Assembly (NCBI GenBank): GCA_934394515.1
Contig: CAKRRU010000006.1
Coordinates: 1-41,512 of the forward strand
From: an uncultured Acetatifactor sp.
GTDB lineage: Bacteria; Bacillota; Clostridia; Lachnospirales; Lachnospiraceae
DNA: 41,512 nucleotides
Reading direction: 5' to 3'
Every line of letters starts with the position of its first letter. Positions within the stretch are counted from its first letter, which is position 1. Under the pieces are notes generated by a model, which saw only the letters and a list, made by a program, of their open reading frames with translations, did no database searches and was not told the DNA's origin. Shown here piece by piece: positions 8,462 to 39,828 of the stretch. The position numbers and the translations under genes are program-made.

Positions 8462-8490
8462 TGAGCCGTTTTGCTTCCGGGCACCGTCTT
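8462..8490 (+). promoter_or_regulatory. ECF-type promoter upstream of the polysaccharide operon
   Basis: TGAGCC (8462-8467), exactly 18 nt, then GTCTT (8486-8490). The same layout with TGAACC and the same 18-nt spacing occurs at 35165 and 39800. The match to the 39800 site extends to TGA(A/G)CCGTTT and GTCTTT. It lies ~170 nt upstream of the first gene of the polysaccharide operon. It is the weakest of the three copies because of the A-to-G change in the -35 element. Confidence 0.6.
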
Positions 8491-8587
8491 TCCCTATAGA
8501 AGCGCTTTTTGGGTGCATGGACAATTTATATAATTTATACAGGCTGATACATAAGAAGAAAGCGGACAGGCAAATGTCCGGAGAATG

Positions 8588-8626
8588 ATATCCATCAGGG
8601 AATTCCCTGGTGGATATTTTCATTTT
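8588..8626 (+). terminator. Attenuator-like hairpin in the polysaccharide operon leader
   Basis: Arms ATATCCATCAGGGAA (8588-8602) and TTCCCTGGTGGATAT (8603-8617) pair with a single G-U-type exception and run into TTTTCATTTT. It lies between the candidate promoter and ATG 8662, so it could terminate the leader transcript unless antitermination occurs. Control of long polysaccharide operons by processive antitermination is known in Firmicutes; no antiterminator gene is present here. Confidence 0.55.
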
Positions 8627-8661
8627 GAGGAAAAGCAGAATTTGTCGAAAAGGAGAGGACA

Positions 8662-10065
8662 ATGTTGGAAACGATCTTGAATAATTTTCATCTGGAGAAG
8701 ATCCTGTGGATCCTGCGAAAAAGAATCGCATATATTATGATCCTGGGGGTACTGGGCGGTATGGCCGGAGGCGCTTATGCGTATCTGACCGACAGCACCC
8801 TGTACCGTGCGGAGGTATCATTTTATGTCTACAGCGACCCGGATTATGTGTATGATTCTTCAATCAATATCTCGAATTCCGAATTTACACAGGCTAAGAA
8901 TCTGGTACAGAGCTACATATTAATTCTGAAGAGTAACACGGTCCTGGAGAAGGTAAGGGAGGAAATCGGGTCAGACTACGGGCCGGAGACACTTTCAAGA
9001 ATGATCGGTACCGGCATGGCAGAGAATACGGCGGTCTTTTATGTCTATGTGTATGACAGTGATCCTTACCGGGCCATGGAACTGGCCAATGCCATAGGCA
9101 GGGTGGCTCCGAAGGAGATCGGCCGGATCGTGAAGTCCGGCGGTATTGAAGTGGTCGATTATGCCACATTGCCGGAAGCGCCCTACAGTTCCACCGGCCT
9201 GACCAAATATGCGCTGCTCGGTTTTGCCGGGTGCTTCGGGGCATCCTTTGTATTGTTTCTGCTGGCAGGACTGATGGACACCACGATCCGCAGGCGTTAT
9301 GAGCTGAAACTGGCATTCCGGATTCCCGTGCTGGGAGACATTCCCCAGATCCAGGCGCCGGATCGGAAGAGTAAGCCCGTTCTGGTGCTGGGAGAGAACA
9401 GTTCCTTCGCCGTCAAAGAATCCTACAATACCATCCGGGCCAATCTGCTGTTCACGGGAAAGGGAGAACGCTGTCCGGTCTATGCCGTTACCAGCGCAGA
9501 TCAGAATGAAGGGAAGACCTTAAACAGTGTCAACATTGCCATCAGCTACGCACAGCTTGGGAAAAAGGTACTGCTCATCGACGGAGACATGCGGAATATG
9601 TCGGTAGCTTCCCTGTTAAAGCTCCGGGGCAGGCTGGGGCTGAGCCAGTATCTGGCGGGACTGCGGGAGACTCCTCAGATTCTGGAATACCGGGAAAATC
9701 TGGATGTGCTGGTAGGGGGAGAGAATCCGCCGAATCCTTCCGAACTGTTGGGAGGAGAGCGGATGAAGGAACTCCTGCTCGGGCTGCGGGAGCAGTACGA
9801 TTGTATCATTATCGATCTGCCGCCGGTCGGGATCGTTACGGACGCCCTGCTGCTGTCCCATGAGGTTACCGCATATCTGCTGGTAATACGGGCCGGTGTC
9901 AGTCATATGAGCCGGGAAAAGACGGCGGTGACATTGCTTGAGCAGGTGGACGCTGATATCTGCGGAATCCTGTTTAACGGTCTGCCGCCGAGATCCAAAG
10001 ATTGTAACTATAGATTGCAGGAATATTGGAAAGAATATAAGCAGCAAAACGGAGAGGCAGTGTGA
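8662..10065 (+). CDS. Fused Wzz-type chain-length regulator and BY-family tyrosine kinase
   Basis: First gene of the polysaccharide operon. Residues ~10-205 form a Wzz-type module with membrane helices at ~26-46 and ~175-205 and an extracellular coiled-coil region. The C-terminal part is a bacterial tyrosine kinase: Walker A TSADQNEGKT (~278-287), Walker A' LLIDGDMR (~302) and Walker B IIIDLPPVG (~383). The C-terminus has a small tyrosine cluster (NYRLQEYWKEYKQQ) as expected for autophosphorylation sites. In many Firmicutes the two modules are separate genes (CpsC/CpsD-like); here they are one chain, as in Gram-negative Wzc. It controls polymer length and export. AAAAGGAGAGG precedes ATG 8662. 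Confidence 0.94.
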   Translation: MLETILNNFHLEKILWILRKRIAYIMILGVLGGMAGGAYAYLTDSTLYRAEVSFYVYSDPDYVYDSSINISNSEFTQAKNLVQSYILILKSNTVLEKVREEIGSDYGPETLSRMIGTGMAENTAVFYVYVYDSDPYRAMELANAIGRVAPKEIGRIVKSGGIEVVDYATLPEAPYSSTGLTKYALLGFAGCFGASFVLFLLAGLMDTTIRRRYELKLAFRIPVLGDIPQIQAPDRKSKPVLVLGENSSFAVKESYNTIRANLLFTGKGERCPVYAVTSADQNEGKTLNSVNIAISYAQLGKKVLLIDGDMRNMSVASLLKLRGRLGLSQYLAGLRETPQILEYRENLDVLVGGENPPNPSELLGGERMKELLLGLREQYDCIIIDLPPVGIVTDALLLSHEVTAYLLVIRAGVSHMSREKTAVTLLEQVDADICGILFNGLPPRSKDCNYRLQEYWKEYKQQNGEAV

Positions 10066-10523
10066 CAGGTATGAAGATATGTTTTGCCGCATCGTCCGGC
10101 GGCCACTTTGAACAGCTGATGATGTTAAAACCCTTGATGGAAAAATACGAAAGCTTTGTGGTGACGGAGAAAACGGGCTATGAGGTAAAGACACCTGTAA
10201 AATGCTACTATCTGCATCAGGTGAACCGCAGACAGTGGTGCTGTCTGTTATATCTGTTGAAAAACAGTTTATATTCTCTCCGGCTGCTGCACAGAGAACA
10301 GCCGGATGTGGTGGTATGCACCGGGGTACTGGCCATGATCCCTCTGTGCATGGAAGCCAAACTTTCCGGCAGGAAGCTGATCTACATCGAATCCTTTGCA
10401 AAGGTGACTTCGGCCACTCTGACGGGAAAGCTGTTATATCATTATGCGGATCGTTTTTATGTTCAGTGGGCGCAGATGAAGGAAATCTATCCGGATGCGA
10501 TCTGCCTGGGAGGAATTTATTAG
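10062..10523 (+). CDS. Alg14/PssD-like glycosyltransferase subunit
   Basis: A 153-residue protein beginning MTGMKICFAASSGGHFEQLM; SSGGH is the conserved glycine-rich start of Alg14/CpsF/PssD proteins. In such systems the Alg14-type subunit is the membrane recruiter and acceptor-binding half, and forms one enzyme with the Alg13-type half encoded by the next gene. The GTG at 10062 overlaps the upstream stop in a GTGA arrangement, indicating translational coupling; an ATG at 10071 is an alternative start. It probably adds the second sugar to the lipid-linked repeat unit. Confidence 0.9.
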   Translation: MTGMKICFAASSGGHFEQLMMLKPLMEKYESFVVTEKTGYEVKTPVKCYYLHQVNRRQWCCLLYLLKNSLYSLRLLHREQPDVVVCTGVLAMIPLCMEAKLSGRKLIYIESFAKVTSATLTGKLLYHYADRFYVQWAQMKEIYPDAICLGGIY

Positions 10524-10524
10524 G

Positions 10525-12735: not shown

Positions 12736-12770
12736 CAGGCATAAGCGGACAGAGAGAAAAAGGGGAAAAT

Positions 12771-13700: not shown

Positions 13701-13704
13701 GACA

Positions 13705-15099: not shown

Positions 15100-15116
15100 A
15101 GAAAAAGGGTAAAATT

Positions 15117-16283: not shown

Positions 16284-16285
16284 CC

Positions 16286-25103: not shown

Positions 25104-25141
25104 GCAGTGGTCATGAAATATGGATAGGAGTGTAAAAAGCT

Positions 25142-25591
25142 ATGAAAAGTCCGTGGGGATTTCTTCGGAAAAATCCCTGGAAACAGGAGACCTTACTTAC
25201 CTATTATTATTCCGCGGTCTTTCGGATGCAGCTGCTGCTCCTGCCGCCCGGGAAAATGCGGAAATCCTGGGGCAGGGAAAACGGGGAGTCTGCCGGAATG
25301 CAGACACCGGAAGAATACCGGCAGGCGGCGATAATCTCCCGAATCGTAGGAAAGGTCTGTGATAAGACGCCATGGGAGAGTAAATGCCTGGTGCGGGCAC
25401 TGGCGGCACAGAGACTTTTATATCGCCGGGGAATGTCTTCCACGCTGTATCTGGGATGCGGCATGGAAGAAGGAAAAATGGTGGCACATGCATGGCTGCG
25501 CTGCGGGGAAATATATGTCACCGGCGGAGACGGAAGCTCCTATACCACAGTCGCCCGGTTCTGCAAGGATGTGCCGGAGAAAAGGGGATAA
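25142..25591 (+). CDS. Lasso peptide leader peptidase, B2 (transglutaminase-like)
   Basis: This is the B2 half of a split lasso B enzyme, which cleaves the leader after binding by B1. The 149-residue protein carries Cys82 in ESKCLVRALA, His116 in VAHAWLRCG and Asp130 in VTGGDG, the catalytic triad of the PF13471 transglutaminase-like family. The start at ATG 25142 follows AGGAG; another ATG at 25120 is out of frame with these motifs. It is 2 nt upstream of the cyclase gene. The matching B1 (PqqD-like) gene is at 28750. Confidence 0.93.
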   Translation: MKSPWGFLRKNPWKQETLLTYYYSAVFRMQLLLLPPGKMRKSWGRENGESAGMQTPEEYRQAAIISRIVGKVCDKTPWESKCLVRALAAQRLLYRRGMSSTLYLGCGMEEGKMVAHAWLRCGEIYVTGGDGSSYTTVARFCKDVPEKRG

Positions 25592-25593
25592 GT

Positions 25594-27372: not shown

Positions 27373-28280
27373 TGAAATATTTTTACAGAATCTATGGACT
27401 ACGGGTGCAGTCGCAGATCCCATTTTCGCAGGCACAGCCGGATGCGGAAGGAAAGGAGGATGTCCGGATCGTATTCGGAAGAGTCCCGGATTTCCTGCGG
27501 GAGGCGGCACGGAAAGGCTACGGAACCTGGACAAATGGCTTCACCTCGGCATGGTTCAGAGTGCGGGACGGAACACAGGTCTATGTGGAGAATGGCAGGA
27601 GGATAACGGTGGAACTTTCTAAGGAGCCGCACCTGCCGGACATTACTTCTTTGTTACTCAGTGCGGGGATGGCGTTGATCTGCCTGCAGAGAGGAGAACC
27701 TTTTTTCCACGGAAGTGCACTGTATCAGGGAGAACAGGCTTTTCTGCTCTGCGGGGAGAGCGGCGCAGGCAAGTCTACGGTGACCATGGAACTGCTGCGG
27801 AGAAAGTCAGGGTTTCTGGCTGATGATACGGTGAGAGTACATCCGGGAAAACAGGGAATGCTGGCGGAACCTTCCTATCCGCAGCAGAAGCTCTGCCGTG
27901 ATATGGCTCTTAGGTGCGGCAGACCGTTGGAAGAACTGATCTATATCGATGAGGAACGGGACAAATATGCATTGCACCGTCAGGACTGCTACGGAAAACA
28001 GGCGGTGCCTCTGAGAGGGATCTTCCTGTTGCGGAAGACGGCAGGAGGATCCGGAGAGCAGCCGGTGCGCATCCGGAGCATTACGGGAAAGGAAGCATTG
28101 GAGGCACTCAGCGGGCAGTTGTATCTGGCGGATACTTACCGGTACAGCACCGGAATCCCGTATCCTTTGATGGAGCAGCTGGTCCGGATCGCAGGACAGG
28201 CAGGAATCTATGAAGTGACCAGACCGGAGAGCAAAGATACGCTCCGTGAGGTCGTAACGAAAATCTTACAGTTTTGTTAG
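27369..28280 (+). CDS. HPr-kinase-like lasso peptide kinase, copy 1
   Basis: This 303-residue protein has the HPr kinase C-terminal fold: Walker A GESGAGKST at 129-137, the upstream FHGSAL with His114, and YIDEERDKYAL plus a KLCRD segment later. In paeninodin-type clusters such kinases (PadeK) phosphorylate the C-terminal serine of the precursor. ATG 27369 overlaps the cyclase stop; ATG 27372 is an equal alternative. A second, clearly related kinase is encoded at 30705. The adjacent precursor A1 ends in Gln, not Ser, so its substrate is not obvious. Confidence 0.88.
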   Translation: MMKYFYRIYGLRVQSQIPFSQAQPDAEGKEDVRIVFGRVPDFLREAARKGYGTWTNGFTSAWFRVRDGTQVYVENGRRITVELSKEPHLPDITSLLLSAGMALICLQRGEPFFHGSALYQGEQAFLLCGESGAGKSTVTMELLRRKSGFLADDTVRVHPGKQGMLAEPSYPQQKLCRDMALRCGRPLEELIYIDEERDKYALHRQDCYGKQAVPLRGIFLLRKTAGGSGEQPVRIRSITGKEALEALSGQLYLADTYRYSTGIPYPLMEQLVRIAGQAGIYEVTRPESKDTLREVVTKILQFC

Positions 28281-28308
28281 AAAGAGGGTATTTTGAAAGG
28301 GGAATCAC

Positions 28309-28314
28309 TATAAT
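28309..28314 (+). promoter_or_regulatory. Candidate -10 element upstream of precursor A1
   Basis: A TATAAT lies 42 nt before the precursor start, in the 75-nt gap after the kinase gene. No -35 element is visible at 16-18 nt, so a promoter here is tentative. With the terminator at 28575 it would define a short separate precursor transcript. Confidence 0.35.
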
Positions 28315-28355
28315 TAAAAATGTAGTTACCAAAAATATATAAGGAGGAACGGAAA

Positions 28356-28532
28356 ATGAAAGCATGGAGTCAGCCCGCAGTAGAGGAACTGAACGTAAGA
28401 GCAACGGCTTACAGCCCTAAGGGAGGTCTGATCGAGGACGGCGTATACCAGTCCGATGACGGAAAGTATACACTCCCTACCTATGGTCCTTCTTCCGGCA
28501 ATTCCGGAGAGCCTACCGTAGATGTACAGTAG
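28356..28532 (+). CDS. Lasso peptide precursor A1 (58 aa)
   Basis: Starts MKAWSQPAVEELNVRATA with AAGGAGG directly upstream. The W-x-Q-P-x-x-x-E-L-x-V leader resembles the Y/W-x-x-P-x-L leader recognised by PqqD-like B1 proteins, and the Thr at position 17 is the expected penultimate leader residue. Cleavage after Ala18 would give a 40-residue core starting YSPKGGLIEDGV. Glu27 is then residue 9 of the core, the right place for a nine-residue macrolactam ring on Tyr1. The tail of ~31 residues is longer than in most known lasso peptides, and an N-terminal Tyr is unusual. The end is TVDVQ. It lies between the kinase gene and B1 in a complete lasso gene set. Confidence 0.85.
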   Translation: MKAWSQPAVEELNVRATAYSPKGGLIEDGVYQSDDGKYTLPTYGPSSGNSGEPTVDVQ

Positions 28533-28574
28533 TTTCTGAACGCTGTATCGGGGAAAAGCCTAAAAGGATCAGGG

Positions 28575-28600
28575 AAGCTCATGGTTACATGGGCTTTTTT
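28575..28600 (+). terminator. Terminator after precursor A1
   Basis: AAGCTCATG (75-83) pairs with CATGGGCTT (88-96) around GTTA with one G-U pair, followed by a run of T to 28600. It lies 43 nt after the precursor stop and would let A1 be made in excess over B1, the exporter and the second kinase, a common layout for peptide precursors. No strong promoter is seen between it and B1. Confidence 0.8.
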
Positions 28601-28651
28601 GGTGTATGGGAGTATAGAGTGTATTTAGAAAGCTTGGCAGAAGGGAGCATA

Positions 28652-28746
28652 GTGTGAAAAATAAATTTTTCACACGCGAGATTTGTGTCTGCGCGCACTT
28701 GACACAAACTTGTTATGCGCAAAGGGCGTGCGCAGAAATGAGGATT
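28652..28746 (+). repeat. Three-hairpin leader element upstream of B1
   Basis: Three inverted repeats follow each other: GTGTGAAAAAT/ATTTTTCACAC (28652-28675), TTTGTGTC/GACACAAA (28682-28708) and TGCGCA/TGCGCA (28716-28734). They are followed by CAGAAATGAGGATT (28733-28746), which contains the ribosome binding site. The leader of the response regulator gene (33474-33580, minus strand) has the same three-hairpin-plus-14-mer design and the same 14-mer. This looks like a dispersed palindromic element or a shared regulatory leader. Confidence 0.6.
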
Positions 28747-28749
28747 AAA

Positions 28750-29049
28750 ATGGACAGAATGGCAAACATCCGGATGAAACGGCAAGGAAACGTGACCGAC
28801 CTGGCAGGAGAGAAGGTCATGGTGGATTTCGAACAGGGAAAGTATTTCTGCATTAAAGGCGTGGGAAATGACATCTGGGATATGCTGGCGGAGCGGGAGC
28901 CCGAGGACGGAAGACCGGGAAGCATGGCGGTGGATACGATACTGCGGAAACTCACGGAAGAATATGAAGTGACGGAAGAGGTCTGCGAAAAAGAGGTGCT
29001 GGCATTCCTGGATAAGCTGAAGCATGCGGGGATCCTGGAAGAGGTGTAG
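28750..29049 (+). CDS. Lasso peptide B1 / PqqD-like leader-recognition protein
   Basis: A 99-residue PqqD-like (RiPP recognition element) protein that binds the precursor leader and delivers it to the B2 peptidase. VDFEQGKYFCIKGVGNDIWD and the C-terminal helix with FLDKLKHAGILEEV are the family pattern. ATG 28750 is chosen because GAGG sits 6 nt before it; an in-frame ATG at 28738 and a start at 28654 would add unlikely N-terminal residues encoded by the hairpin element. The exporter gene starts 6 nt after its stop. Confidence 0.9.
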   Translation: MDRMANIRMKRQGNVTDLAGEKVMVDFEQGKYFCIKGVGNDIWDMLAEREPEDGRPGSMAVDTILRKLTEEYEVTEEVCEKEVLAFLDKLKHAGILEEV

Positions 29050-29055
29050 GCACGC

Positions 29056-30735
29056 ATGGAGAAAATAAGAGGAAGAGATTATGCAGCCTGGCTGTGGCAG
29101 TACACGGCACCGTATGCGGGCAGGGTCGGTCTTTTGTTATTGCTTGGTCTGCTGGAGACCTTTGCGTCACTTGCCATGGTGCAGATCACCAAGGAGATCA
29201 TCGATCATGCCACGGAGGGAAGCGGTTTCGGCCGTCTCCTGGCGGGGTATGTGCTGCTGATGCTGGGAATGCAGGGGATCTCCGTTATGTCGGCACTGCT
29301 TACGGCGCTGGTGACGGAGCGGTTCTCCTTCGGGATAAGACGGCAGATCTATGAGAAGATCCTGCGTTCCGGCTGGCGGGAAGTGACGGCTTACCATACC
29401 GGTGATCTGATGACGCGTCTGACCAGTGACGCAGGCAATGTGGCGGACGGCATCGTGGGGACGATCCCCAATATCTTACAGCTGGGGATCGAACTGGTAT
29501 CGGTATTTTTGATGTTATTTTACTATTCGCCGCTGTTAGCGGTGTTTGCTCTGCTGGTGGCTCCGGTGGCGGCGCTCTGTTCCTGGTGGCTGGGGAAACG
29601 TCTGAAGCGTCTCCAGGGCAGGGTGCAGGAGAGCGAGTCGGCGTACCGGTCTTTTTTACAGGAAAGTCTGGCGAATCTTCTGATCGTAAAATCCTTTACC
29701 GGAGAGGACCGGGCGGTGGAACGCCTGACAAAGCTGCGGGAGGAAAGGTTTTACTGGGTATATCGTAAGACCGGACTGGGAACAGCAAGCTCTGCGGTGA
29801 TGGCTCTGGCATTCCAGGGAGGGTACCTGACCGCATTTTCCTATGGAGCATGGCAGCTGTCGAGGCAGCAGATCACCTACGGCACGATGTCGGTATTTTT
29901 GACACTGGTGAACCGGGTGCAGGCGCCGATCCTCGGACTGGCGCAGCAGATCCCCCGGATCATCGCATTGCTGACCTCTGCGGGAAGGATCATGGAGCTG
30001 CAGCGAATCCCCGGGGAGAAAAGGGGATCCGGGGAGATCCGGGGACCCGGGATCGGAGTGGAGCTTCGGAATGTATGCTTTGGATATACCGCAGAGCCGG
30101 TGCTGAAGCATGTGGACCTGAAGATCCTGCCAGGGGAATTCGTAGCGATCGTAGGAAAATCCGGTATCGGCAAGACCACGCTGATCCGCATTCTGCTGGC
30201 TTTTCTGGAAGCGGGAGAGGGAACGGTGGATTTCTATAACAGTATCGGACAGCATCAGGAGACCGGAGCATATGTGCGGGAGTTTATCGCATATGTTCCC
30301 CAGGGAAATACGCTGTTCAGCGGAACCGTCCGGGAGAATCTGCGGATGGGAAAAGAGGATGCAACGGAACAGGAGCTGTGGGAGGCACTGCAGCTGGCAT
30401 CCGGTGAAAAGTTCGTACGGGAACTGCCCGGGGGACTGGATACGGTCATCGGGGAAAGAGGACACGGTCTGTCGGAGGGACAGGCACAACGGATCGCCAT
30501 CGCCAGAGCTTTTCTCAGAAGAGCTCCGTTTCTCATTCTGGATGAAGCGACATCGGCGCTGGATGAAGATACAGAGCTTGCTGTATTGCAGGGATTGCGG
30601 GCATTGGAACCGAGACCGACCTGCCTGCTCATTACGCACAGAAAAGGTGTATTGAAATATTGTGACCGGGAACTCAGGATCCGGGAAGGGAGTGTGACGG
30701 AAGAATGCAGTACAATTACGACATGTACGGCATGA
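29056..30735 (+). CDS. Lasso peptide ABC exporter (D protein)
   Basis: A 559-residue half-transporter with an N-terminal six-helix exporter domain (to ~310) and an ATPase domain with Walker A GKSGIGKTT (~366), signature LSEGQ (~472), Walker B FLILDEATSALDED (~490) and a switch histidine in LITHRKG. It would secrete the mature peptide and confer self-immunity, as D proteins do in lasso clusters. There is no C39 peptidase domain, consistent with leader removal by B1/B2. It overlaps the second kinase gene by 31 nt. Confidence 0.94.
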   Translation: MEKIRGRDYAAWLWQYTAPYAGRVGLLLLLGLLETFASLAMVQITKEIIDHATEGSGFGRLLAGYVLLMLGMQGISVMSALLTALVTERFSFGIRRQIYEKILRSGWREVTAYHTGDLMTRLTSDAGNVADGIVGTIPNILQLGIELVSVFLMLFYYSPLLAVFALLVAPVAALCSWWLGKRLKRLQGRVQESESAYRSFLQESLANLLIVKSFTGEDRAVERLTKLREERFYWVYRKTGLGTASSAVMALAFQGGYLTAFSYGAWQLSRQQITYGTMSVFLTLVNRVQAPILGLAQQIPRIIALLTSAGRIMELQRIPGEKRGSGEIRGPGIGVELRNVCFGYTAEPVLKHVDLKILPGEFVAIVGKSGIGKTTLIRILLAFLEAGEGTVDFYNSIGQHQETGAYVREFIAYVPQGNTLFSGTVRENLRMGKEDATEQELWEALQLASGEKFVRELPGGLDTVIGERGHGLSEGQAQRIAIARAFLRRAPFLILDEATSALDEDTELAVLQGLRALEPRPTCLLITHRKGVLKYCDRELRIREGSVTEECSTITTCTA

Positions 30736-31667
30736 AAGTGAGATCGGATCTGGATTTTCCACAGTTTGAGCCTGTGAGATCCCAGGAAAAGGATGGAGAT
30801 CCCGTCGGGGGAAAAGTCCGGATCCGTAGGATGAACACAGAGGAAGAAGCAGGGTTTCGCAGAGAACACGGTGGATGCACCTGCGGCAGTGGGCTGGGGA
30901 CGGAAGAGAGCTGGCTGTGTAACCGTACTCTTGAGATGAGCGCAGAACGTGGAACGCAGATCCGCTACCACATAAGAGAAGGAGGAGATCCGGGGGCGGT
31001 GCGGACTTACCTGGCGGGCTTCGGGATGGCAATGCTTGCGCTGCAGCAGGGAAGGTTACCGTTTCATTGCAGCGCACTGGAGTCTCCCGGAGAGAAAGGT
31101 GTGCTGATCGCCGGAGAGAGCGGTGCCGGAAAATCTACCCTGACGGCAGAGCTGCTGGAGAGGGGCTACCGGTTCCTGGCTGATGATATGGCAGTGGTGG
31201 ACGTCTCCGGGGAGGACGGAGTATGGGTGTATCCGTCATATCCTTATATGAAGCTGTGCCGGGATGCGGTGGCAAGACAGGGATATGCTCCGGAAAAACT
31301 GCTGTACATTGATGAAAAAAAGGACAAATTCCTGGTACCGTGTACTGAAAAATTCCAAAGAAAAAAGGTACGGCTGGAAAAATTTGTTTTTCTGGGAATA
31401 CTGCCGGAAGGAGAACGGACAAAAGAGCGGTCCGGTAAAATAAGAGTGGAGAGAATTACGGGACCGGACAGTATGATCGTGTACAAAGACAATCTGTTTG
31501 TAAGACATCTGTGGAAGGGACGGGATCCGGGAAGGGAAATCTGGCAGAACTGCCTGAGAATGGCACAGAAGATACCGGTTTATTCCGTAAAGAGACCGGC
31601 AGCAGGTGATTCCACTGCCGAAGTTGCAGCGGAAGTACACGAACTGCACAGCGTTGTGTCAGCTTAA
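30705..31667 (+). CDS. HPr-kinase-like lasso peptide kinase, copy 2
   Basis: This 320-residue protein is related to the 27369 product: FHCSAL (His121), Walker A GESGAGKST (137-145), YPYMKLCRDAV and LLYIDEKKDKFLV align with its counterparts. It starts inside the exporter gene (31-nt overlap) and its 3' end overlaps the convergent A2 gene by 9 nt. Two kinases for a cluster with two precursors suggests one kinase per peptide, or a heteromeric enzyme; A2 ends in Ser, the residue type phosphorylated in paeninodin. Confidence 0.88.
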   Translation: MQYNYDMYGMKVRSDLDFPQFEPVRSQEKDGDPVGGKVRIRRMNTEEEAGFRREHGGCTCGSGLGTEESWLCNRTLEMSAERGTQIRYHIREGGDPGAVRTYLAGFGMAMLALQQGRLPFHCSALESPGEKGVLIAGESGAGKSTLTAELLERGYRFLADDMAVVDVSGEDGVWVYPSYPYMKLCRDAVARQGYAPEKLLYIDEKKDKFLVPCTEKFQRKKVRLEKFVFLGILPEGERTKERSGKIRVERITGPDSMIVYKDNLFVRHLWKGRDPGREIWQNCLRMAQKIPVYSVKRPAAGDSTAEVAAEVHELHSVVSA

Positions 31668-31930: not shown

Positions 31931-31938
31931 GAAATGTA

Positions 31939-32775
31939 TCAATTTTGTAAGAACTTTGCGGGAAGTGTCATATAGAAGGTACTGCCTTTGCCTAGAGTAC
32001 TTTCGCAGGATACGGTACCGCCGTGGCGTTCTGTGATAGCTTTTACAATGGCAAGTCCCAGACCGCTGCCGGTGGCGGAACCGGGAGTTCTGGCGCGGGA
32101 GACAGTATAAGTACGGCAGAAGATCCGGTCGATGTCTTCCGGGGGTATGCCGGGTCCCTCGTCGCTTACGGAAATCCGGAGCGTGGATGCACCCTTGCAA
32201 GACGCAGCCGCCAGAGTGATCGTTGTGTGGGCGGGAGCGTATTTCGCAGCATTGCCGAGCAGATTATCCAGAACCCGTACTAATTTATCCGGATCCGCCC
32301 AAAGGGTCACGTGCAGATCAGGCGAGACACAAAAGCGCAGATTGTGCCCGGCATAGCGGCTGTCCGGAAGGGCGGTACAGAAATATTCTTCCAGAAAGGA
32401 AAGAGCATCCAGCTTCCGGAACGAAAATCCATGGGAAGGATCTTCCAGAAGAAAAAGCTCATACATATCCCGGATCAGATGTTCTAAAGTCTCTGTACGG
32501 TGGTCGATCAGGGAAAGGGCACCTGCGATATCCTGTGAAGACAGAGTCTGACCGGAGGTGAGATAATCCACGGCACTGCGGATGGCAGTGAGAGGAGCCC
32601 TCAGATCATGGGAGAGGTTAGCCAGCATCTCCGTGCGTTCCCGCTGCATATGCTGCAGGGAACGATTGGTGGCATTGAGCTGCGCCGTGACCTTAAGAAG
32701 CCTGCGGGACAGCTCTTCCGCGGTCTCCTGTTCCAGACAGGGCGAACGGAAGACAGAGCGTGATCCGGAATGCAT
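31939..32775 (-). CDS. Soluble sensor histidine kinase
   Basis: A 278-residue HisKA/HATPase_c kinase. The phosphoacceptor is His56 in NLSHDLRAPLTA, with N box LLGNAAKYAP, D/G1 box DEGPGI and G2 box GSGLGLAIV. The N-terminal ~50 residues are a short coiled coil with no membrane helix and no recognisable sensor domain, so it must receive its signal through a partner protein or intracellularly. AAAGGAGGG (inside the end of the response regulator gene) precedes ATG 32775, so the pair is translationally coupled. Location between the TCS promoter and A2 suggests control of the peptide locus. Confidence 0.93.
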   Translation of the reverse strand: MHSGSRSVFRSPCLEQETAEELSRRLLKVTAQLNATNRSLQHMQRERTEMLANLSHDLRAPLTAIRSAVDYLTSGQTLSSQDIAGALSLIDHRTETLEHLIRDMYELFLLEDPSHGFSFRKLDALSFLEEYFCTALPDSRYAGHNLRFCVSPDLHVTLWADPDKLVRVLDNLLGNAAKYAPAHTTITLAAASCKGASTLRISVSDEGPGIPPEDIDRIFCRTYTVSRARTPGSATGSGLGLAIVKAITERHGGTVSCESTLGKGSTFYMTLPAKFLQN

Positions 32776-32777
32776 AG

Positions 32778-33470
32778 TCAGATCCCTCCTTTCAGAAAGC
32801 GATACCCTTTGGACCAGACCGTTTCGATACGGTTCTCCAGCTCGTAATTGCCTTCGAAACGCTTGCGGAGACGGCTGACATTGACCATGACACTGCGCCT
32901 GTCGCTCTCCCGGTAGACACCGAAGAGTGCCGTTCCCAGTTCTTCGAAAGTGACGTCCCGGTCCGGATGCTCTGCCAGATATAGAAGCACTTCATATTCC
33001 CGGTTGGCCAGCCCCAGATCCTGTTCCAGATAAAAAGCTTTGTGGGCAACCTTGTCAATGGAGAGGTTTCCGATGGACAACACAAGATTGGAGGAAACCT
33101 GCACCAGCTGTCTGCGACGGCGGATCAGAAGATCCACACGGGCTTTCAGCTCCCGGAGACTGTAGGGCTTGATCAGGTAATCGTCTCCGCCGCAGGTAAG
33201 CCCCTTTACCACATCTTCCTCGGAGCCTCTGGCAGTGAGAAACAGGATCGGCACCGTGGAAAAGGAACGGATATAGCGGCACACCCGGTAACCATCGGCT
33301 TCCGGCAGACAGACATCTAATAAAATGCAATCCGGAAGGTTCTTTTGTATGGATAACACGCCTTCCCTGGGGGAAACGGCGGTATACACGGTGAATCCCA
33401 CACCGGTGAGATACTTTTGATTGATCGAAAGCACCTCGGCATCATCATCGATCATTACTAGCTTGGACAT
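32778..33470 (-). CDS. OmpR-family response regulator
   Basis: A 230-residue regulator starting MSKLVMIDDDAEVLSIN. Receiver acidic residues are Asp8-10, the phosphoacceptor is Asp52 in ILLDVCLPEADG, and GDDYLIKPYSL carries the conserved Lys-Pro. The C-terminal winged helix is typical OmpR/PhoB (LANREYEVLLYLAEHPDR, then VNVSRLRKRFE and a KGYRF end). ATG 33470 follows GAGGA in the shared CAGAAATGAGGATT sequence. It is cotranscribed with the histidine kinase gene that starts 2 nt after its stop. Confidence 0.95.
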   Translation of the reverse strand: MSKLVMIDDDAEVLSINQKYLTGVGFTVYTAVSPREGVLSIQKNLPDCILLDVCLPEADGYRVCRYIRSFSTVPILFLTARGSEEDVVKGLTCGGDDYLIKPYSLRELKARVDLLIRRRRQLVQVSSNLVLSIGNLSIDKVAHKAFYLEQDLGLANREYEVLLYLAEHPDRDVTFEELGTALFGVYRESDRRSVMVNVSRLRKRFEGNYELENRIETVWSKGYRFLKGGI

Positions 33471-33473
33471 AAA

Positions 33474-33580
33474 AATCCTCATTTCTGAGCGACTTTGTCG
33501 CGAAGAGGCGAAGTGAAATTCGCATAGGCGATTTCATTTCTGCCATCAAAGCTATTTGCTTTCGCTCGGAAGCAAATAGC
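33474..33580 (-). repeat. Three-hairpin leader element upstream of the response regulator
   Basis: Reading on the minus strand: GCTATTTGCTT pairs with AAGCAAATAGC (33551-33580); an imperfect stem covers 33510-33540 (one bulge, one G-U); GCGAC/GTCGC forms 33489-33501; then CAGAAATGAGGATT (33474-33487) with the ribosome binding site. The design and the 14-mer equal those upstream of lasso B1 at 28652-28746. The hairpins lie within the predicted 5' untranslated region of the two-component operon. Confidence 0.65.
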
Positions 33581-33600
33581 CGTGTGCTGTTATTGGTGAT

Positions 33601-33629: not shown

Positions 33630-33712
33630 CAAAGGAAGGTCGACAGAGAAGGACAGAAGAGAACAAAAAACCGGAGACCGGAGGAAAAAGCGACACGAAA
33701 AGGGGGAGAAAA

Positions 33713-35122: not shown

Positions 35123-35164
35123 AAAAAGTTTCTGACGAAAAAAATGTAAAAATTTTTATTTTTT

Positions 35165-35193
35165 TGAACCTTTTTTATGAGACGGACAGTCTT
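35165..35193 (+). promoter_or_regulatory. ECF-type promoter of the PilZ/surface-protein operon
   Basis: TGAACC (35165-35170), 18 nt, GTCTT (35189-35193). The spacer ends in GGACA exactly as in the 39800 site, and both continue (A/T)ATAG(G/A)TA. The start site would be ~70 nt before ATG 35263. No terminator hairpin is obvious after the priming transferase gene, only an A/T-rich stretch. Confidence 0.75.
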
Positions 35194-35262
35194 AATAGGT
35201 AAGATGAAATAAAAAGGGGCGTTTTAACAGGCATCTCTGGAAGAAAGGAGCAAAAGGGCACG

Positions 35263-35598
35263 ATGGAAGAACGAAGACGGATTGACCGTGTGAACTATCA
35301 GGCGAAGAGCGTTATTGTAGTATGCGATACGGGAGAGAGCTTCTTTGTGGAGACCCGGAATGTCAGTCCGCTGGGAATCGCTTTTACCATGCCGGCGGGA
35401 TCACCGCAGCTGATCGGGAAAGATATCATTATCGTAGCGGATACGATGATCATGTATGCGGATGTCACGAGACAGGAAGCACAGGAAGACGGAAGTTTCA
35501 AGGTAGCGATCTCTGCCAGAAAGTTCACGCCGGAAGTATTGAACTATTTATTTGAACATATCACAGAAAACAAGATGATGATCGAGGAGGAGCAATAG
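35263..35598 (+). CDS. PilZ-domain protein (c-di-GMP receptor-like)
   Basis: A 111-residue single-domain PilZ protein. The c-di-GMP-binding residues are visible: R5-x3-R9 in RRRIDR and N33-x-S35-x-x-G38 in NVSPLG. Such proteins bind c-di-GMP and control motility, pili or polysaccharide synthesis. AGAAAGGAG lies before ATG 35263. The large surface protein gene starts right after its stop, so it probably shares the ECF-type promoter. It gives the region a c-di-GMP input, while the only GGDEF protein here appears catalytically degenerate. Confidence 0.88.
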   Translation: MEERRRIDRVNYQAKSVIVVCDTGESFFVETRNVSPLGIAFTMPAGSPQLIGKDIIIVADTMIMYADVTRQEAQEDGSFKVAISARKFTPEVLNYLFEHITENKMMIEEEQ

Positions 35599-38500
35599 AT
35601 GAGAAAGAACATTAAGAACGATAAAGTGATCCGTGCCATGGCAATCGGTATCTCCGCAATGCTGATGGCATCGTCCCCGCTGACCGCACTGGCAGCAGAG
35701 GGAGAGGGCACTATTCCGGAGGGCAATGATGATAACAATATTACCGTAACTCCGGAAGCAGGTATTGCTGACCAGGCACAGGAAGCTGCCGGTAAGGCTG
35801 CCACAGAAGCGAAAAAGGCAGAAGATAAGGCATATGAAGTAAAAGGTGAGGTGCAGGAAGGCACCAAGGATGCGGAAGCGGAAGTCGGCAAAGAACTGGC
35901 AGATGATATCCGGGGGGCAAATGCCAATATAGAAGCTGCTACCTCAAAGGATGGTGCGTCCATTAATAATGCCGGAACAGATATTACAAATGCAAATACC
36001 GCACTGGGTGTTGCTGAGGCAAACGATAAGATCTCCGATGCAGAACTGAATAAGGCAGCCGATGCAGCAGACAAAGCAGGTCAGATTGCCGAAGAAGCTA
36101 AAGATGCCATGAAGGATGCACAGGACAAGATCGACGGACAGATCGAGGACATCAAGGGTGCGTCTACCATTGAGGATGCAAACGCAGCTTACGAGGAAGC
36201 ACAGAAGACCGCAGACCAGGCACAGGCAGATTTCGATGCAAAGCTTGCGGAGTATAATAATGCAAAGACAGCTTACGATGAGGCGGCAGAGAAGCTGGCA
36301 GCTTCCGAAGAGGCATATGAGGCTGCAATGAATAGTGCGGATGCAAATGCAGCGGCAGCGGCAGCAGAGCTTGCAAAGGCACAGGAGAATGCAAAAGCAC
36401 TTGCAGATGCTCTGAGTGCGGCTAAGAAGGCAGTAGATGATTCCGCAGCCGGTGCAATGGATATCGTAGAGAAGGAAGAACTGACACAGAATGACAATGG
36501 ACTGAACTGGAGAAATGAGGATAAACTCTTCATCTCCATTATGAAGAATTATTATCTGCCTGAGGAACTGGGAATCAAGGGTGATACCACTGTTGTCCGT
36601 AAACAGGGCAAAGATAATAATACCATGAATTACTTCGAAGTAACCTATACGGATGAAAACGGAGCAACGCAGAAGAAGTATTATAACTTCCTGATGGATG
36701 ACAAGGATGCAAAGGGTGACCAGAAGGATCAGGATAATATCGTGATCTTCGAGAAGAGACTTGTAGAGATCAACTGGGAAGAGGAACAGGAGAAGAATCC
36801 GGATCAGTATGTGGTAAAAGAAGAGATTGACGGAAAAGAAGTCACCAGCGTAATCAGCAAAGATGATTTGCAGGCAGGTATTGTGGACGGTAGTATTGTA
36901 AAAGTGACGGATGATGCCGGTAAAGAAACGTATGTTAAGAAGAATGCGTTGACCGGAAGTGAGACTTTTGTTTCTGACAGCGAGATCACCGGTACCAGCA
37001 CAGAAGATGTTACCGTGGATAAGGATAGCCGGAAGGAATCCTGGTCTCTGGATGAAACAACCGGTAACCTGATCAAGACCGTTACCGCAGATGTGACCAC
37101 CATTACGTATACTGATGCGAAGTTTAATTCTGCAGACAATAACGAGTATTATGATACTGAGGAAGCGAGCAGAGCCGCAGCAGAAGATAAGAAGAAAGAA
37201 TTGGCACCTGCCACATCCGGCAAGGATGCAACGATTGATGTTACAGATAAGACCGACTACACCTATACTGCAAGCGGAACCTATATTCCTACCTTTACCA
37301 AGACGGTGGATGTAAAGAATGAAGAGGTTGAATGGAAGCATACAGATAAAAAGACGGATTATGGTGTAAGAACAGAGGAAGAAGCAGTAGCAAAGGTTAC
37401 GAAAGAGCAGGAGAAGGCGTTAAGCGACAAGATTAACGATGATGACGACTTATACCTGATCGGTGTAAGCAGTGATCTTAAGGTGACCGGCTATACAGAA
37501 GATCACTGGTATGATGATTCCGACTTCCTCGTATCAGGCAAGGTATCCGCAACCTACGCCAAGGTAACCAAGAAGACCGTTGACCAGAGCACACTCGGGG
37601 CTATCTGGGATGACATCAAAGCATTGTTCGGCAAAGGAGAGACTGCCAACAAGAAGCTGGAGGATGCAGCAAGAGCAGCTGTAGAAGCAGATGGCGGTAT
37701 CTTCGTCAGTGCAAACTGGGATGACTGGAAGCTTGGCAAGGCAACCATCCGTTATGTTGCAGGCGTCAAGAAGACTTCCACAGAGGAAAAGACGGATGCC
37801 AAGGATGCAGAGAGTGCACTGAAGGAAGCTATGCTGGCAGAGGCAAAGAAGAGCGGTGCTACCGGCATTTACAATGTAAATACCAATACCGATGAAATTG
37901 TACACACCAGCTATTCCTATACCATTGATTATCTGAAGCAGAATCCTAAGTCTACAGAGAATCAGGTAATTGCAACCGAGACTTATGCAGATGCAGCAGT
38001 ACTGACCGGTCAGATCATCCAGAACCTGAATTACTATGAAAATCGTATTGACCTGACCCAGAAGGATGAAAAATATCGTCAGTTTATAGAAAATGCCAAG
38101 AATCTCACTGAGAAATATCAGAAACTGCTGACAGAAGCAGAGGCAGCTCAGGCAGAAGTAGAAGATGCCCAGAACGCAGTAGATACATTGAAGGATGAGA
38201 TCAAGAAGCTGAAAGAGAGCAGAACCGGTAACCTGGATGCATTGACCGAGCTGGAAGCAAAACTGACGGTAGCTGAGCAGAACAGACAGGCTGCGGAAGA
38301 TTCTCTGAATGATATCAACAAGAAGCTGGACGAGGCAGGCGGAGAACTGGAGAAGGTAATTGATCGTCTGACTCCTGCACCTACCCCTGAGAATCCCAGC
38401 GGAGGTGAAGGCGGAACAGACAATGGTGGTGCCGGAACTACGGAAGGCGGAACAAATAACGGCGGTGCCGGAACTACCGAAGGCGGAACAGATAACGGCG

Positions 38501-38970
38501 GTGCCGGAACTACCGCAGGCGGAACAGGTAATGAAGGCACCGGAACTGATGATGCCGGAGAGAATGATGACAACGACGATGATAACGGTGAAGTGGCAGC
38601 TGTAGCAGCTCCTGAGGTTCTTGCCCCTGCACCGGTCGCACAGGCAAATGTAGTGGCACAGAATCAGGTCGTAGCTCCCGGAGTTGTACAGATCGCTGAC
38701 GAAGCAGCACCGCTTGCGGACGCAGCACCTGCAAATACACAGGAAACTGTTCAGGCAGGATCTGATAAGGAAGAGAACAAAGAAGCTGTTAACATTGAGG
38801 AAGAGGCTGTTCCTCTTGCAGATGTGGCAGTGGAAGATGAACATGCGAAGATGTCCTGGTGGTGGTTACTGATCGTAATGATCCTCGGTGCAACCGGATA
38901 CGAGATGTACAGAAAGCATAACGAGAAGAAACTGAAGGCACAGGCTGACGACACAGAAGACACTGAGTAA
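35599..38970 (+). CDS. Large cell-surface protein with coiled coils and C-terminal membrane anchor
   Basis: A 1123-residue exported protein. A Sec signal peptide covers ~1-33 (likely cleavage after TALA). Residues ~50-290 are Ala/Glu/Lys-rich coiled coil; ~300-830 is a beta-rich region of unknown fold; ~840-930 is a second coiled coil; 938-985 holds four 12-residue Gly/Thr/Asn repeats (GGTDNGGAGTTE type); then a Val/Ala/Pro-rich linker with IADEAAPLA (1032-1040) and EEEAVPLA (1067-1074); a membrane helix at ~1085-1104 (MSWWWLLIVMILG) and a charged tail. There is no LPxTG motif, so it is a membrane-anchored stalk-like adhesin. GGAGGAG precedes ATG 35599. Codon use resembles highly expressed genes (gca, gaa, aag) and differs from the polysaccharide genes. 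Confidence 0.9.
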   Translation: MRKNIKNDKVIRAMAIGISAMLMASSPLTALAAEGEGTIPEGNDDNNITVTPEAGIADQAQEAAGKAATEAKKAEDKAYEVKGEVQEGTKDAEAEVGKELADDIRGANANIEAATSKDGASINNAGTDITNANTALGVAEANDKISDAELNKAADAADKAGQIAEEAKDAMKDAQDKIDGQIEDIKGASTIEDANAAYEEAQKTADQAQADFDAKLAEYNNAKTAYDEAAEKLAASEEAYEAAMNSADANAAAAAAELAKAQENAKALADALSAAKKAVDDSAAGAMDIVEKEELTQNDNGLNWRNEDKLFISIMKNYYLPEELGIKGDTTVVRKQGKDNNTMNYFEVTYTDENGATQKKYYNFLMDDKDAKGDQKDQDNIVIFEKRLVEINWEEEQEKNPDQYVVKEEIDGKEVTSVISKDDLQAGIVDGSIVKVTDDAGKETYVKKNALTGSETFVSDSEITGTSTEDVTVDKDSRKESWSLDETTGNLIKTVTADVTTITYTDAKFNSADNNEYYDTEEASRAAAEDKKKELAPATSGKDATIDVTDKTDYTYTASGTYIPTFTKTVDVKNEEVEWKHTDKKTDYGVRTEEEAVAKVTKEQEKALSDKINDDDDLYLIGVSSDLKVTGYTEDHWYDDSDFLVSGKVSATYAKVTKKTVDQSTLGAIWDDIKALFGKGETANKKLEDAARAAVEADGGIFVSANWDDWKLGKATIRYVAGVKKTSTEEKTDAKDAESALKEAMLAEAKKSGATGIYNVNTNTDEIVHTSYSYTIDYLKQNPKSTENQVIATETYADAAVLTGQIIQNLNYYENRIDLTQKDEKYRQFIENAKNLTEKYQKLLTEAEAAQAEVEDAQNAVDTLKDEIKKLKESRTGNLDALTELEAKLTVAEQNRQAAEDSLNDINKKLDEAGGELEKVIDRLTPAPTPENPSGGEGGTDNGGAGTTEGGTNNGGAGTTEGGTDNGGAGTTAGGTGNEGTGTDDAGENDDNDDDNGEVAAVAAPEVLAPAPVAQANVVAQNQVVAPGVVQIADEAAPLADAAPANTQETVQAGSDKEENKEAVNIEEEAVPLADVAVEDEHAKMSWWWLLIVMILGATGYEMYRKHNEKKLKAQADDTEDTE
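38410..38553 (+). repeat. 36-nt tandem repeat, about four copies
   Basis: Four consecutive 36-nt units starting at 38410, 38446, 38482 and 38518 encode GGTDNGGAGTTE, GGTNNGGAGTTE, GGTDNGGAGTTA and the diverged GGTGNEGTGTDD. This is the flexible stalk linker before the membrane anchor and a likely site of length variation between strains. Confidence 0.92.
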
Positions 38971-39026
38971 AGTGATGTGACGTAATACAGTGTATACAGA
39001 TACTTTACAGAAAAGTTAAGAAAAAG

Positions 39027-39071
39027 GAAGGCACCGGCCTGGAAGAAAACCCAGGTTGATGCCTTCTTTTT
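39027..39071. terminator. Bidirectional terminator between surface protein and lipoprotein genes
   Basis: Arms GAAGGCACCGGCCTGG (39027-39042) and CCAGGTTGATGCCTTC (39051-39066) pair with two G-U pairs and one mismatch. Five T residues follow on the plus strand and a T-run lies on the minus side, fitting the two convergent genes. Confidence 0.85.
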
Positions 39072-39603
39072 ACTCGAAGAGTTCTTCCACCTTTTCCAGA
39101 TCACCGTCTCCGGTCAGAAGCAGTGATGCGGAAGTCCTGGCGGTGCTGATATCCGTTTTCCCTTCAACACAGAGCTCACCATCAGTATTGTAAAGTGCCC
39201 ACTGGAATTCGGTCACAGAGGAAGGCCAGTCAGCTTCCATGGAGATCGATTCTCCGTCGGACAGGGAATCCAGATTGACCTGTTCCCCAGTCACGGGATC
39301 GATCACAGCGACCATACCGATCTCAATGCCGCACATATTGACCACGGACAGTGTGAGCGTCCTGGTATCAGCATCAGCTGTTTCGCCGGAGGGAGCTTCT
39401 GCACTTTCTGCGGAAGGTTCTTGGGAGGTTTCGGCAGAGATTTTGTCGGAGGACTCCGTAGTGGCTTCGGCAGAGATGACTGTCTCTGTGGCCGGTTGCG
39501 AGACGGAATCCTGTGCGACACCGGATTGACCGCAGCCTCCGAACAACAGACAACAGGAGACCACGGTTATTGTGAAAATACGTTGCAGAATTTTTTTGTG
39601 CAT
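39070..39603 (-). CDS. Exported lipoprotein (177 aa)
   Basis: The N-terminus (basic MHKKILQR, hydrophobic core, lipobox LFGGC with Cys24) marks a lipoprotein. Residues ~25-80 are a Ser/Thr/Glu/Ala-rich linker. The C-terminal ~95 residues form a beta-rich domain (LTLSVVNMCGIEIGMVAVID) of no family I recognise; the WPSSVTEFQWALYN segment suggests a small Ig-like or beta-sandwich fold. It is convergent with the surface protein gene and has its own sigma-A-type promoter. A surface role next to the adhesin is inferred. Confidence 0.8.
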   Translation of the reverse strand: MHKKILQRIFTITVVSCCLLFGGCGQSGVAQDSVSQPATETVISAEATTESSDKISAETSQEPSAESAEAPSGETADADTRTLTLSVVNMCGIEIGMVAVIDPVTGEQVNLDSLSDGESISMEADWPSSVTEFQWALYNTDGELCVEGKTDISTARTSASLLLTGDGDLEKVEELFE

Positions 39604-39628
39604 TGTCGAATCCTTTCTTACTTAAAAA

Positions 39629-39654
39629 TTGCAAATTGATAATATCAATTGCAA
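39629..39654. promoter_or_regulatory. Palindrome in the lipoprotein leader
   Basis: TTGCAAATTGATA (39629-39641) and TATCAATTGCAA (39643-39654) are inverted repeats apart from one extra A. It lies 26 nt before the lipoprotein start within its predicted leader and may be an operator or a leader hairpin. Confidence 0.5.
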
Positions 39655-39698
39655 AAGAAGTGTTTATTGACAGCGGTACTTATGATTTTTTCTATTTT

Positions 39699-39727
39699 AT
39701 TATAACGAAAATCGCAGGAAATGTAAA
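39699..39727 (-). promoter_or_regulatory. Sigma-A promoter of the lipoprotein gene
   Basis: On the minus strand TTTACA (39722-39727), 17 nt, TATAAT (39699-39704). The transcript would start near 39692, leaving an ~88-nt leader that includes the palindrome at 39629-39654. The 257-nt gap 39604-39860 also holds the ECF-type promoter at 39800. Confidence 0.75.
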
Positions 39728-39799
39728 TTTGCGAGATGAAAAAATGCCACCGTGAAAAAACTGAAAAGATGCCGTTTTTTGAAAAAATTCACAGAAATG

Positions 39800-39828
39800 T
39801 GAACCGTTTCATGAAAGAGGACAGTCTT
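39800..39828 (+). promoter_or_regulatory. ECF-type promoter of the small membrane protein gene
   Basis: TGAACC (39800-39805), 18 nt, GTCTT (39824-39828), followed by TATAGATAG. The match to the 35165 site includes the GGACAGTCTT block, and the match to the 8462 site includes CCGTTT and GTCTTT. It would start transcription about 28 nt before ATG 39861. Confidence 0.75.

What the first reader, a model, noticed from the sequence alone, without database searches (positions are those of the whole stretch)
8462..39828. Three matching ECF-type promoters linking polysaccharide, surface-protein and small membrane-protein genes
TGA(A/G)CC-N18-GTCTT occurs at 8462-8490, 35165-35193 and 39800-39828, always in an intergenic region on the coding strand and with identical 18-nt spacing. 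Further bases are shared (GGACAGTCTT in two, CCGTTT and GTCTTT in another pair). A -35 with AAC and a -10 with GTC is the standard ECF layout, and an ECF sigma factor is encoded at 7050-7613. This suggests one regulon for exopolysaccharide, the PilZ/adhesin pair and the 111-residue protein.
Basis: partly seen in the sequence, partly recalled or inferred. Interest (0 to 1): 0.8.

Follow-up and report, generated by a model that had tools for sequence, protein, structure and literature searches.

The report
Sigma-factor promoters for surface genes
Three look-alike DNA switches in a gut bacterium are most likely turned on by one regulator encoded beside them, and the same switch and regulator recur together in many related bacteria in front of cell-surface genes, suggesting an unstudied control circuit for the cell surface.

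Summary
The three sites are real, far above chance (3 found, 0.06 expected), and most likely are promoters read by the local ECF sigma factor (7050-7613). In 38 related sigma loci the strict motif occurs 24 times in 23 loci, always upstream of sigma on the divergent strand; 10 more loci carry a close variant there. A weight matrix from relatives scores the window sites 34.0, 33.0 and 22.0; the next place scores 1.4. A close relative's complete genome (GAM79) has four intergenic sites: three are orthologues of the window's, the fourth precedes two surface proteins. In most relatives the target is a small membrane protein like 39861-40196, with a motif such as IEDEATPLA before its membrane helix; the large surface protein 35599-38970 and the GAM79 pair end with it too. 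The sigma operon is a conserved module: degenerate GGDEF, sigma, putative anti-sigma, transglutaminase-like lipoprotein, type II secretion/type IV pilus F protein, pilin-like genes. The weakest site (8462, TGAGCC) may be a former promoter of the small gene, now in front of polysaccharide genes. No transcript was measured.

The parts
8462..8490 (+). Predicted ECF promoter 1 (TGAGCC-GTTTT...GTCTT), upstream of the wzz/tyrosine-kinase gene and polysaccharide genes
   Evidence: score 22.0; orthologue in GAM79 at G001:C1:3222239 with partly different spacer letters
35165..35193 (+). Predicted ECF promoter 2, upstream of PilZ and the large surface protein
   Evidence: 34.0; orthologue G001:C1:3195441
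39800..39828 (+). Predicted ECF promoter 3, upstream of the 111-residue membrane protein
   Evidence: 33.0; orthologue G001:C1:3191035
7050..7613 (-). ECF sigma factor, 187 aa; proposed reader of the three sites
   Evidence: 95% identical in GAM79
6530..7042 (-). Putative anti-sigma factor: short helical N-terminus, one membrane helix, beta-rich outer domain
   Evidence: no Pfam or NCBIfam family; no PDB fold match with E <= 0.001
5474..6508 (-). Transglutaminase-like protein with a lipobox-like N-terminus; Cys, His and Asp of the triad visible by eye
   Evidence: (Transglut_core 2.8e-19), sequence
4390..5511 (-). Type II secretion / type IV pilus inner-membrane F protein
   Evidence: (T2SSF 4.2e-49)
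3528..4130 (-). DUF4860 protein, hydrophobic pilin-like segment by eye
3045..3497 (-). Pilin-like protein (hydrophobic N-terminal helix with Glu, by eye)
   Evidence: sequence; no Pfam family
2636..3127 (-). Pilin-like protein (by eye)
   Evidence: sequence; no Pfam family
7646..8350 (-). GGDEF protein with hydrophobic N-terminal part and degenerate RNGGNEF motif, first gene of the sigma operon
8662..10065 (+). Wzz/tyrosine autokinase, first gene after promoter 1
35263..35598 (+). PilZ protein with an RxxxR and an NxSxxG motif, 111 aa
35599..38970 (+). Large coiled-coil-like surface protein; C-terminus VNIEEEAVPLA...WWWLL hydrophobic helix
39861..40196 (+). 111-aa membrane protein with VQIEDEATPLA before its membrane helix; member of the conserved divergent small-protein family

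Best explanation
The three sites are promoters of one ECF sigma regulon. The sigma factor at 7050-7613 is probably held at the membrane by the single-pass protein encoded next to it (6530-7042) and freed by an unknown envelope signal. RNA polymerase with this sigma then starts at A-tract / TGAACC-N-TTTT / N13 / GTCTT-WWTW promoters: (1) into the polysaccharide genes from wzz; (2) into PilZ and a large surface protein; (3) into a small membrane protein. Shown by comparison: the motif, its fixed spacing, its divergent place beside the sigma operon, and its targets in relatives. Inferred: that this sigma reads it, that 6530-7042 is the anti-sigma factor, and the signal. The sigma operon has no such site. 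By eye a sigma-A-type -10 box (TACAAT, TATAAT, TATACT on the minus strand, letters) lies back to back with site 1 in the window and two close relatives, so the operon itself may be driven by the housekeeping sigma factor; the automated scan did not list it.
For: Chance expectation 0.06 against 3. 24 strict sites in 23 of 38 sigma loci, none from the reversed pattern in the same loci. Other spacings from 12 to 25 give 0-5 hits: the five at 16 are antisense in rpoC (coordinates), the two at 17 are promoter-like sites of two Oscillospiraceae. T8 and T9 are invariant in 22 of 22 training sites though not selected. Window scores 34.0/33.0/22.0, next 1.4, Markov maximum 14.8 in 40 runs (the GAM79 and L034 counterparts of site 1 are in the training set). 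Sigma-motif association 7 of 17 against 11 of 282; the reversed-pattern control has, by hand count, 21 matches in 20 genomes, none of them sigma-positive, so 13 against 0 in sigma-positive genomes and 11 against 21 in the rest. Spacer and flanks diverge in part between window and GAM79 at sites 1 and 3 while the boxes stay, but for one A/G change. In GAM79 four strict hits are intergenic, three of them orthologous to the window's.
Against: No transcript data. By bare count the motif is not enriched in whole GAM79: 5 strict hits against 4 of the reversed pattern, and with the T-run and one mismatch 6 against 5 (G002 7 against 3); the case there rests on place, architecture and orthology. GAM79 has other possible ECF sigma genes (27 candidates in the first look), so another sigma could share the sites. 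The putative anti-sigma gene is not detected in 9 of 38 loci, four of them Oscillospiraceae. 10 of 17 sigma-positive genomes lack the T-run form; by the matrix five of these have a divergent site above 20 (G115 32.9, G140 31.6, G223 25.2, G087 23.5, G216 20.3) and five do not (at most 12.2) (the null was made for the window's composition only). Two sigma-negative genomes have intergenic sites, one upstream of a different ECF sigma gene. The looser pattern has no control and also gave one same-strand hit (L037). Related loci are not independent samples.
Confidence: 0.85

Rival explanations
1. The sites are ECF promoters, but another ECF sigma factor of the genome reads them, alone or as well.
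For: Several sigma-like candidates per genome in the first look; ECF regulons overlap in well-studied Firmicutes (own knowledge). In G011 a similar site precedes a different ECF sigma gene.
Against: Divergent adjacency to this sigma in 33 of 38 loci; the association across 299 genomes. Where the -10 reads CTCTT (G087, G115, G216) the sigma is among the more divergent (48-49% identity).
Confidence: 0.1
2. Site 1 (8462) is an inherited remnant of the divergent promoter of the small gene; the polysaccharide operon is no longer really in the regulon, while sites 2 and 3 are.
For: In at least 25 of 38 loci the gene at this place is the small membrane protein (one search lists 26; L037 is doubtful). 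Site 1 scores lowest, lacks AAC, and reads GTCTTTCCCTATAG where the norm is GTCTT-WWTW. 171-nt leader with a terminator-like hairpin.
Against: The boxes are kept in GAM79 (TGAGCC...GTCTT, sigma 95% identical) although spacer and flanks have partly diverged. In G002 Alg14- and Wzz-like genes also lie downstream of this promoter, after the small and the large surface gene.
Confidence: 0.3
3. The repeats are operators for a transcription factor rather than promoters.
For: The two-box layout alone would allow it.
Against: Fixed 18-nt spacing, on the coding strand upstream of the gene, no evident dyad symmetry, -35/-10-like boxes with a T-run, A-tract in front; the sigma gene is the constant neighbour.
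Confidence: 0.04

Closest known systems
ECF sigma promoters of Bacillus subtilis (sigma W, M, X, V; consensus from own knowledge)
   Same: -35 box with a conserved AAC triad followed by a T-tract that contributes to activity (T-tract: passages of PMC6056542), GTC-type -10, spacing of this class
   Different: Here TGAACC instead of TGAAAC, GTCTT instead of CGTC/CGTA, a different regulon, and no site upstream of the sigma operon itself
PEP-CTERM/EpsH (exosortase) system of Proteobacteria (PMC1569441, abstract and passages)
   Same: Exopolysaccharide genes, surface proteins that share a C-terminal signature, and a conserved promoter motif upstream of those proteins, with a regulator of matching distribution
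   Different: That system uses sigma-54 with PrsK/PrsR; the signature here is I-x-D/E-D/E-x-x-P-L-A and also occurs in genomes without this sigma; exosortase was not searched for
NCBIfam NF033073, doubled-motif LPXTG anchor domain
   Same: Weak match over the motif and membrane helix of the 111-aa protein (21.1 bits)
   Different: Below the curated cut-off of 48; matched 2 of 27 family members; the 111-aa protein and its relatives continue with a cytoplasmic tail
Type II secretion / type IV pilus assembly (GspF, PilC, ComGB)
   Same: F protein over the Pfam cut-off, pilin-like genes; in 23 of 38 loci a T2SSE ATPase is also present
   Different: No such ATPase gene in the window; an ECF sigma factor and a transglutaminase-like protein belong to the operon

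Membership tests
ECF sigma factor family | Regions 2 and 4 in a short protein of about 190 aa | tested here: met
   187 aa; Sigma70_r2, r4 and r4_2 over cut-off; TIGR02937 over cut-off
A named ECF subgroup (SigW, SigV, SigM, SigX, TIGR02954) | Score over the curated model cut-off | tested here: not met
   Of 105 matching models the best 25 are shown; all but the superfamily model TIGR02937 are under their cut-offs
ECF regulon with a cognate promoter motif | Motif adjacent to the sigma gene and co-distributed with it | tested here: met
ECF regulon with a cognate promoter motif | Transcription from the motif depends on the sigma factor | not testable with these tools
   Needs RNA or in vitro data
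Membrane anti-sigma factor (6530-7042) | Cytoplasmic sigma-binding segment, one membrane helix, outer sensor domain, gene next to sigma | tested here: inconclusive
   Topology and position fit; no family or fold match; not detected in 9 of 38 loci
Type II secretion / type IV pilus machine | F protein, E ATPase, pilins and prepilin peptidase | tested here: inconclusive
   F met; E in the locus in 23 of 38 relatives but not in the window; E and peptidase families found in 6 of 6 genomes searched; pilin-like genes judged by N-terminal sequence only
LPXTG_double anchor domain (NF033073) | Score of at least 48 bits | tested here: not met
   21.1 bits for the 111-aa protein
Active diguanylate cyclase (7646-8350) | GG(D/E)EF signature (own knowledge) | tested here: not met
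   RNGGNEF in the window; RN-x-GN-(E/D)F in 26 of 28 orthologous ORFs

The most novel reading that the evidence does not exclude
A self-contained envelope module of Lachnospiraceae and Oscillospiraceae: a pilus-like export machine, a transglutaminase-like lipoprotein and an ECF sigma/anti-sigma pair that monitors the export or anchoring of surface proteins marked by the I-x-D/E-D/E-x-x-P-L-A motif. The small membrane proteins, which are little more than the motif, a membrane helix and a tail, would be built-in reporters or adaptors: the machine acts on the motif and its state sets sigma activity, which in turn raises production of motif-bearing adhesins and of polysaccharide.
Probability: 0.2. 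Interest if true: 0.8.

Novelty: new variant of a known kind. Interest (0 to 1): 0.6.

Why it matters
If true, abundant but little-studied gut and rumen bacteria coordinate capsule, adhesin and small surface proteins through one sigma factor with a promoter code that can be read straight from genomes. That makes its regulon predictable in many species and makes the function of the adjacent pilus-like/transglutaminase module directly testable. Six searches of the open-access library asked about this regulon, its module or DUF4860; judged by the titles and abstract starts listed (lists capped at 8 to 15), none describes it. Subscription papers were not covered, and the ECF re-classification paper is not held.

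Tried and rejected
The window's own genome is not held, so whole-genome tests were made in relatives. One search used a misframed pattern for the protein motif (one base short) and is discarded; one search repeats it correctly. Idea rejected: that the I-x-D/E-D/E-x-x-P-L-A motif is specific to this sigma. One search finds its strict form in 23 of 299 genomes, 19 of them sigma-negative; many are C-terminal surface-protein signatures and some are chance matches in unrelated proteins. Idea rejected: that every motif protein of a sigma-positive genome is in the regulon. In GAM79 3 of 3 strict matches are downstream of a site, but in G033 two of five (contig C45) and in G208 one of three (contig C11) lie on contigs without the T-run form; the matrix found no good site in the stretches fetched, which may not reach the upstream end of the G208 gene. 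Idea rejected: LoaP antitermination for the wzz leader; one NusG-family match in each of two relatives. Rfam gave no match at gathering thresholds. Fold search for 6530-7042 gave no match with E <= 0.001. The ECF re-classification paper could not be read. Not done: a tree-based test of co-evolution of sigma and promoter, a second structure prediction, a search for exosortase or sortase genes. The sigma loci come from six peptide patterns and are not exhaustive; L039 (Prevotellaceae, 27%) was left out of most counts. Alignment A2 holds 26 of the 31 candidate small-gene ORFs plus the window's own; L004, L011, L029, L032 and L037 were left out. Alignment A1 holds the window's and 23 relatives' putative anti-sigma proteins. 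The matrix uses 22 distinct sites with full flanks of the 24 found.
Full report
Observation. TGARCC-N18-GTCTT occurs exactly three times in the window, at the stated places and strand; dinucleotide shuffles give 0.06 on average and 0 of 100 give three. All three sites lie between genes and point at the next one. Site 1 has TGAGCC, the other two TGAACC.

Where the window comes from. The sigma protein is 95% identical to one of Lachnospiraceae bacterium GAM79 (complete genome, L001) and 94% to one of a MAG (L034); 36 further loci are 35-70% identical and one (L039, Prevotellaceae, 27%) is remote. The window's own genome is not held.

The motif belongs to the sigma locus. In loci L001-L038 (552,445 bases) the strict motif occurs 24 times in 23 loci. 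All 24 are on the strand divergent from the sigma gene, 64 to 1,223 bases upstream of its start; the reversed pattern has no hit in the 39 loci. Other spacings from 12 to 25 give 0 to 5 hits. The five at 16 fall, antisense, inside the rpoC matches; the two at 17 are the same promoter-like element in two Oscillospiraceae, upstream of a small membrane-protein gene. Of the 15 loci without a strict site, 10 have a near-match in the divergent position (TGGACC or TGACCC with GTCTT; TGAACC with GTCAT or GTCCT; TGAGCC with spacing 17), two have under 900 bases of upstream sequence and three have none; this looser pattern has no control and gave one same-strand hit, in L037.

Motif shape. From 22 distinct divergent sites the profile is: A-rich stretch, TGAACC, W, TTTT, 13 poorly conserved bases, GTCTT, WWTW. 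The T-run was not part of the selection, yet two of its positions are invariant. A T-tract behind the AAC triad is a described feature of Bacillus ECF promoters (PMC6056542, passages). With this matrix the window's three sites score 34.0, 33.0 and 22.0, the next place 1.4, and the highest value in 40 Markov sequences is 14.8; the GAM79 and L034 counterparts of site 1 are in the training set. The sigma operon itself has no site.

Genome-wide tests. In 299 genomes of the family the T-run form occurs in 18 and a sigma relative at E <= 1e-30 in 17; both occur in 7, so 7 of 17 against 11 of 282 (Fisher 1.1e-5). The sigma-positive genomes hold 13 sites and no match of the reversed control; the others hold 11 sites and, by hand count, 21 control matches, that is, background. 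In sigma-positive genomes 12 of 13 sites lie outside frames of 150 codons or more; in the rest 2 of 11. These two are upstream of a different ECF sigma gene (G011) and of a short membrane-protein gene before rpsL (G047, no sigma relative within the 9 kb fetched). Of the ten sigma-positive genomes without the T-run form, five have a divergent site scoring above 20 and five do not.

GAM79. The strict pattern has five hits in 4.1 Mb against four of the reversed control, so the bare count is not enriched; place and architecture tell them apart. Three are the orthologues of the window's sites. One lies upstream of two surface proteins, the first with a choice-of-anchor A domain, the second with an LPXTG anchor over its cut-off. 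One is antisense inside a long frame and lacks the T-run. Allowing one mismatch in the T-run form gives six hits against five of the control: three exact ones, the site-1 orthologue, and two inside coding frames. In G002 the T-run form has three exact hits; of four one-mismatch hits one (L161) is outside long frames.

Targets. The gene under the divergent promoter is, in at least 25 of 38 loci, a small membrane protein (one search lists 31 candidate ORFs). Its typical plan, by eye, is an optional signal sequence, a short outer segment ending in a motif like VQIEDEATPLA or FVVQNNDVPLA, a membrane helix, and a cytoplasmic tail with GWN..KL or HP-(I/V)-(R/K). Five relatives without GGDEF (L006, L007, L010, L014, L017) lack the motif or were not recovered; four of these keep the helix and tail. 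The protein at 39861-40196 is of this family, which has no Pfam domain and few names in the protein collection. PilZ is under a site in the window, GAM79, G033 and L003. The large surface protein has the motif and a hydrophobic helix at its C-terminus in the window, GAM79, G033, G208 and L034, and the GAM79 surface pair has the motif near its C-terminus. The motif is wider than the regulon.

The sigma operon. By BLAST against the window's proteins, most of the 38 loci keep the order GGDEF, sigma, putative anti-sigma, transglutaminase-like, T2SSF, DUF4860, pilin-like, pilin-like; GGDEF is not detected in L005, L006, L007, L010, L014, L017 and the four Oscillospiraceae, the putative anti-sigma in 9 of 38, and several short contigs end early. 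In 23 of 38 loci a T2SSE ATPase is also present; in the window it is not. The GGDEF protein has RN-x-GN-(E/D)F in 26 of 28 orthologues, so it is probably not an active cyclase, while the PilZ protein has RxxxR and NxSxxG (the meaning of both signatures is from own knowledge). The putative anti-sigma model has a helix at 13-26, a long helix at 36-81 and beta strands at 88-160, mean pLDDT 79.7, pTM 0.48.

Reading. The most conserved target is the small membrane protein; the polysaccharide arm is the weakest, because site 1 stands where relatives keep the promoter of the small gene, but it is conserved in GAM79 and in G002 polysaccharide genes also follow that promoter. What the sigma senses, and whether the transglutaminase-like or pilus-like parts act on the motif, is not shown here.

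Novelty. ECF regulons are a known kind. This promoter code, its regulon and the attached module did not turn up in the titles and abstract starts listed by six searches. The nearest parallel in design is the PEP-CTERM system (PMC1569441, abstract and passages).

Noticed in passing
8-916 and beyond 41264; L005-L008, L010, L011, L013, L014, L017, L098, L100; L089: The sigma module, and in the window the whole polysaccharide island, lies between rpoC and rpsL: rpoC is at the left end of the window and rpsL follows rmlD in GAM79 (L089).
   Followed up: partly
8563-8618: The wzz leader holds two hairpins, the second a 14-pair terminator-like palindrome; the stretch is 91% identical in GAM79 and not found in G002, and only one NusG-family protein is found in each, so no LoaP. 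A leader attenuator is possible.
   Followed up: partly
23925-31667: A lasso-peptide-like cluster inside the polysaccharide operon: B2 protein over its cut-off, a cyclase-like asparagine synthase (below the lasso cyclase cut-off), two HprK-like kinases, an ABC transporter, a nucleotidyltransferase, and by eye a possible 58-aa precursor at 28356-28532.
   Followed up: partly
7646-8350: The GGDEF protein of the sigma operon has a consistently degenerate RN-x-GN-(E/D)-F signature in 26 of 28 orthologues, as if kept for a non-catalytic role.
   Followed up: partly
31939-33482: A histidine kinase and response regulator on the minus strand in front of the sugar-transferase gene; in G223 (L146) their relatives follow the sigma promoter and a small motif protein.
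   Followed up: no
L051, G011:C88:39852: A similar TGAACC-TTTT...GTCTT site precedes a different ECF sigma gene, perhaps an autoregulated relative.
   Followed up: no
L064, L068: In G195 and G043, sites in trans lie upstream of proteins that look like CAP/SCP-type secreted proteins by eye (second gene in G043) and carry motif-like segments (LDSEAIALS, MDDEAIALA) after the signal sequence.
   Followed up: no
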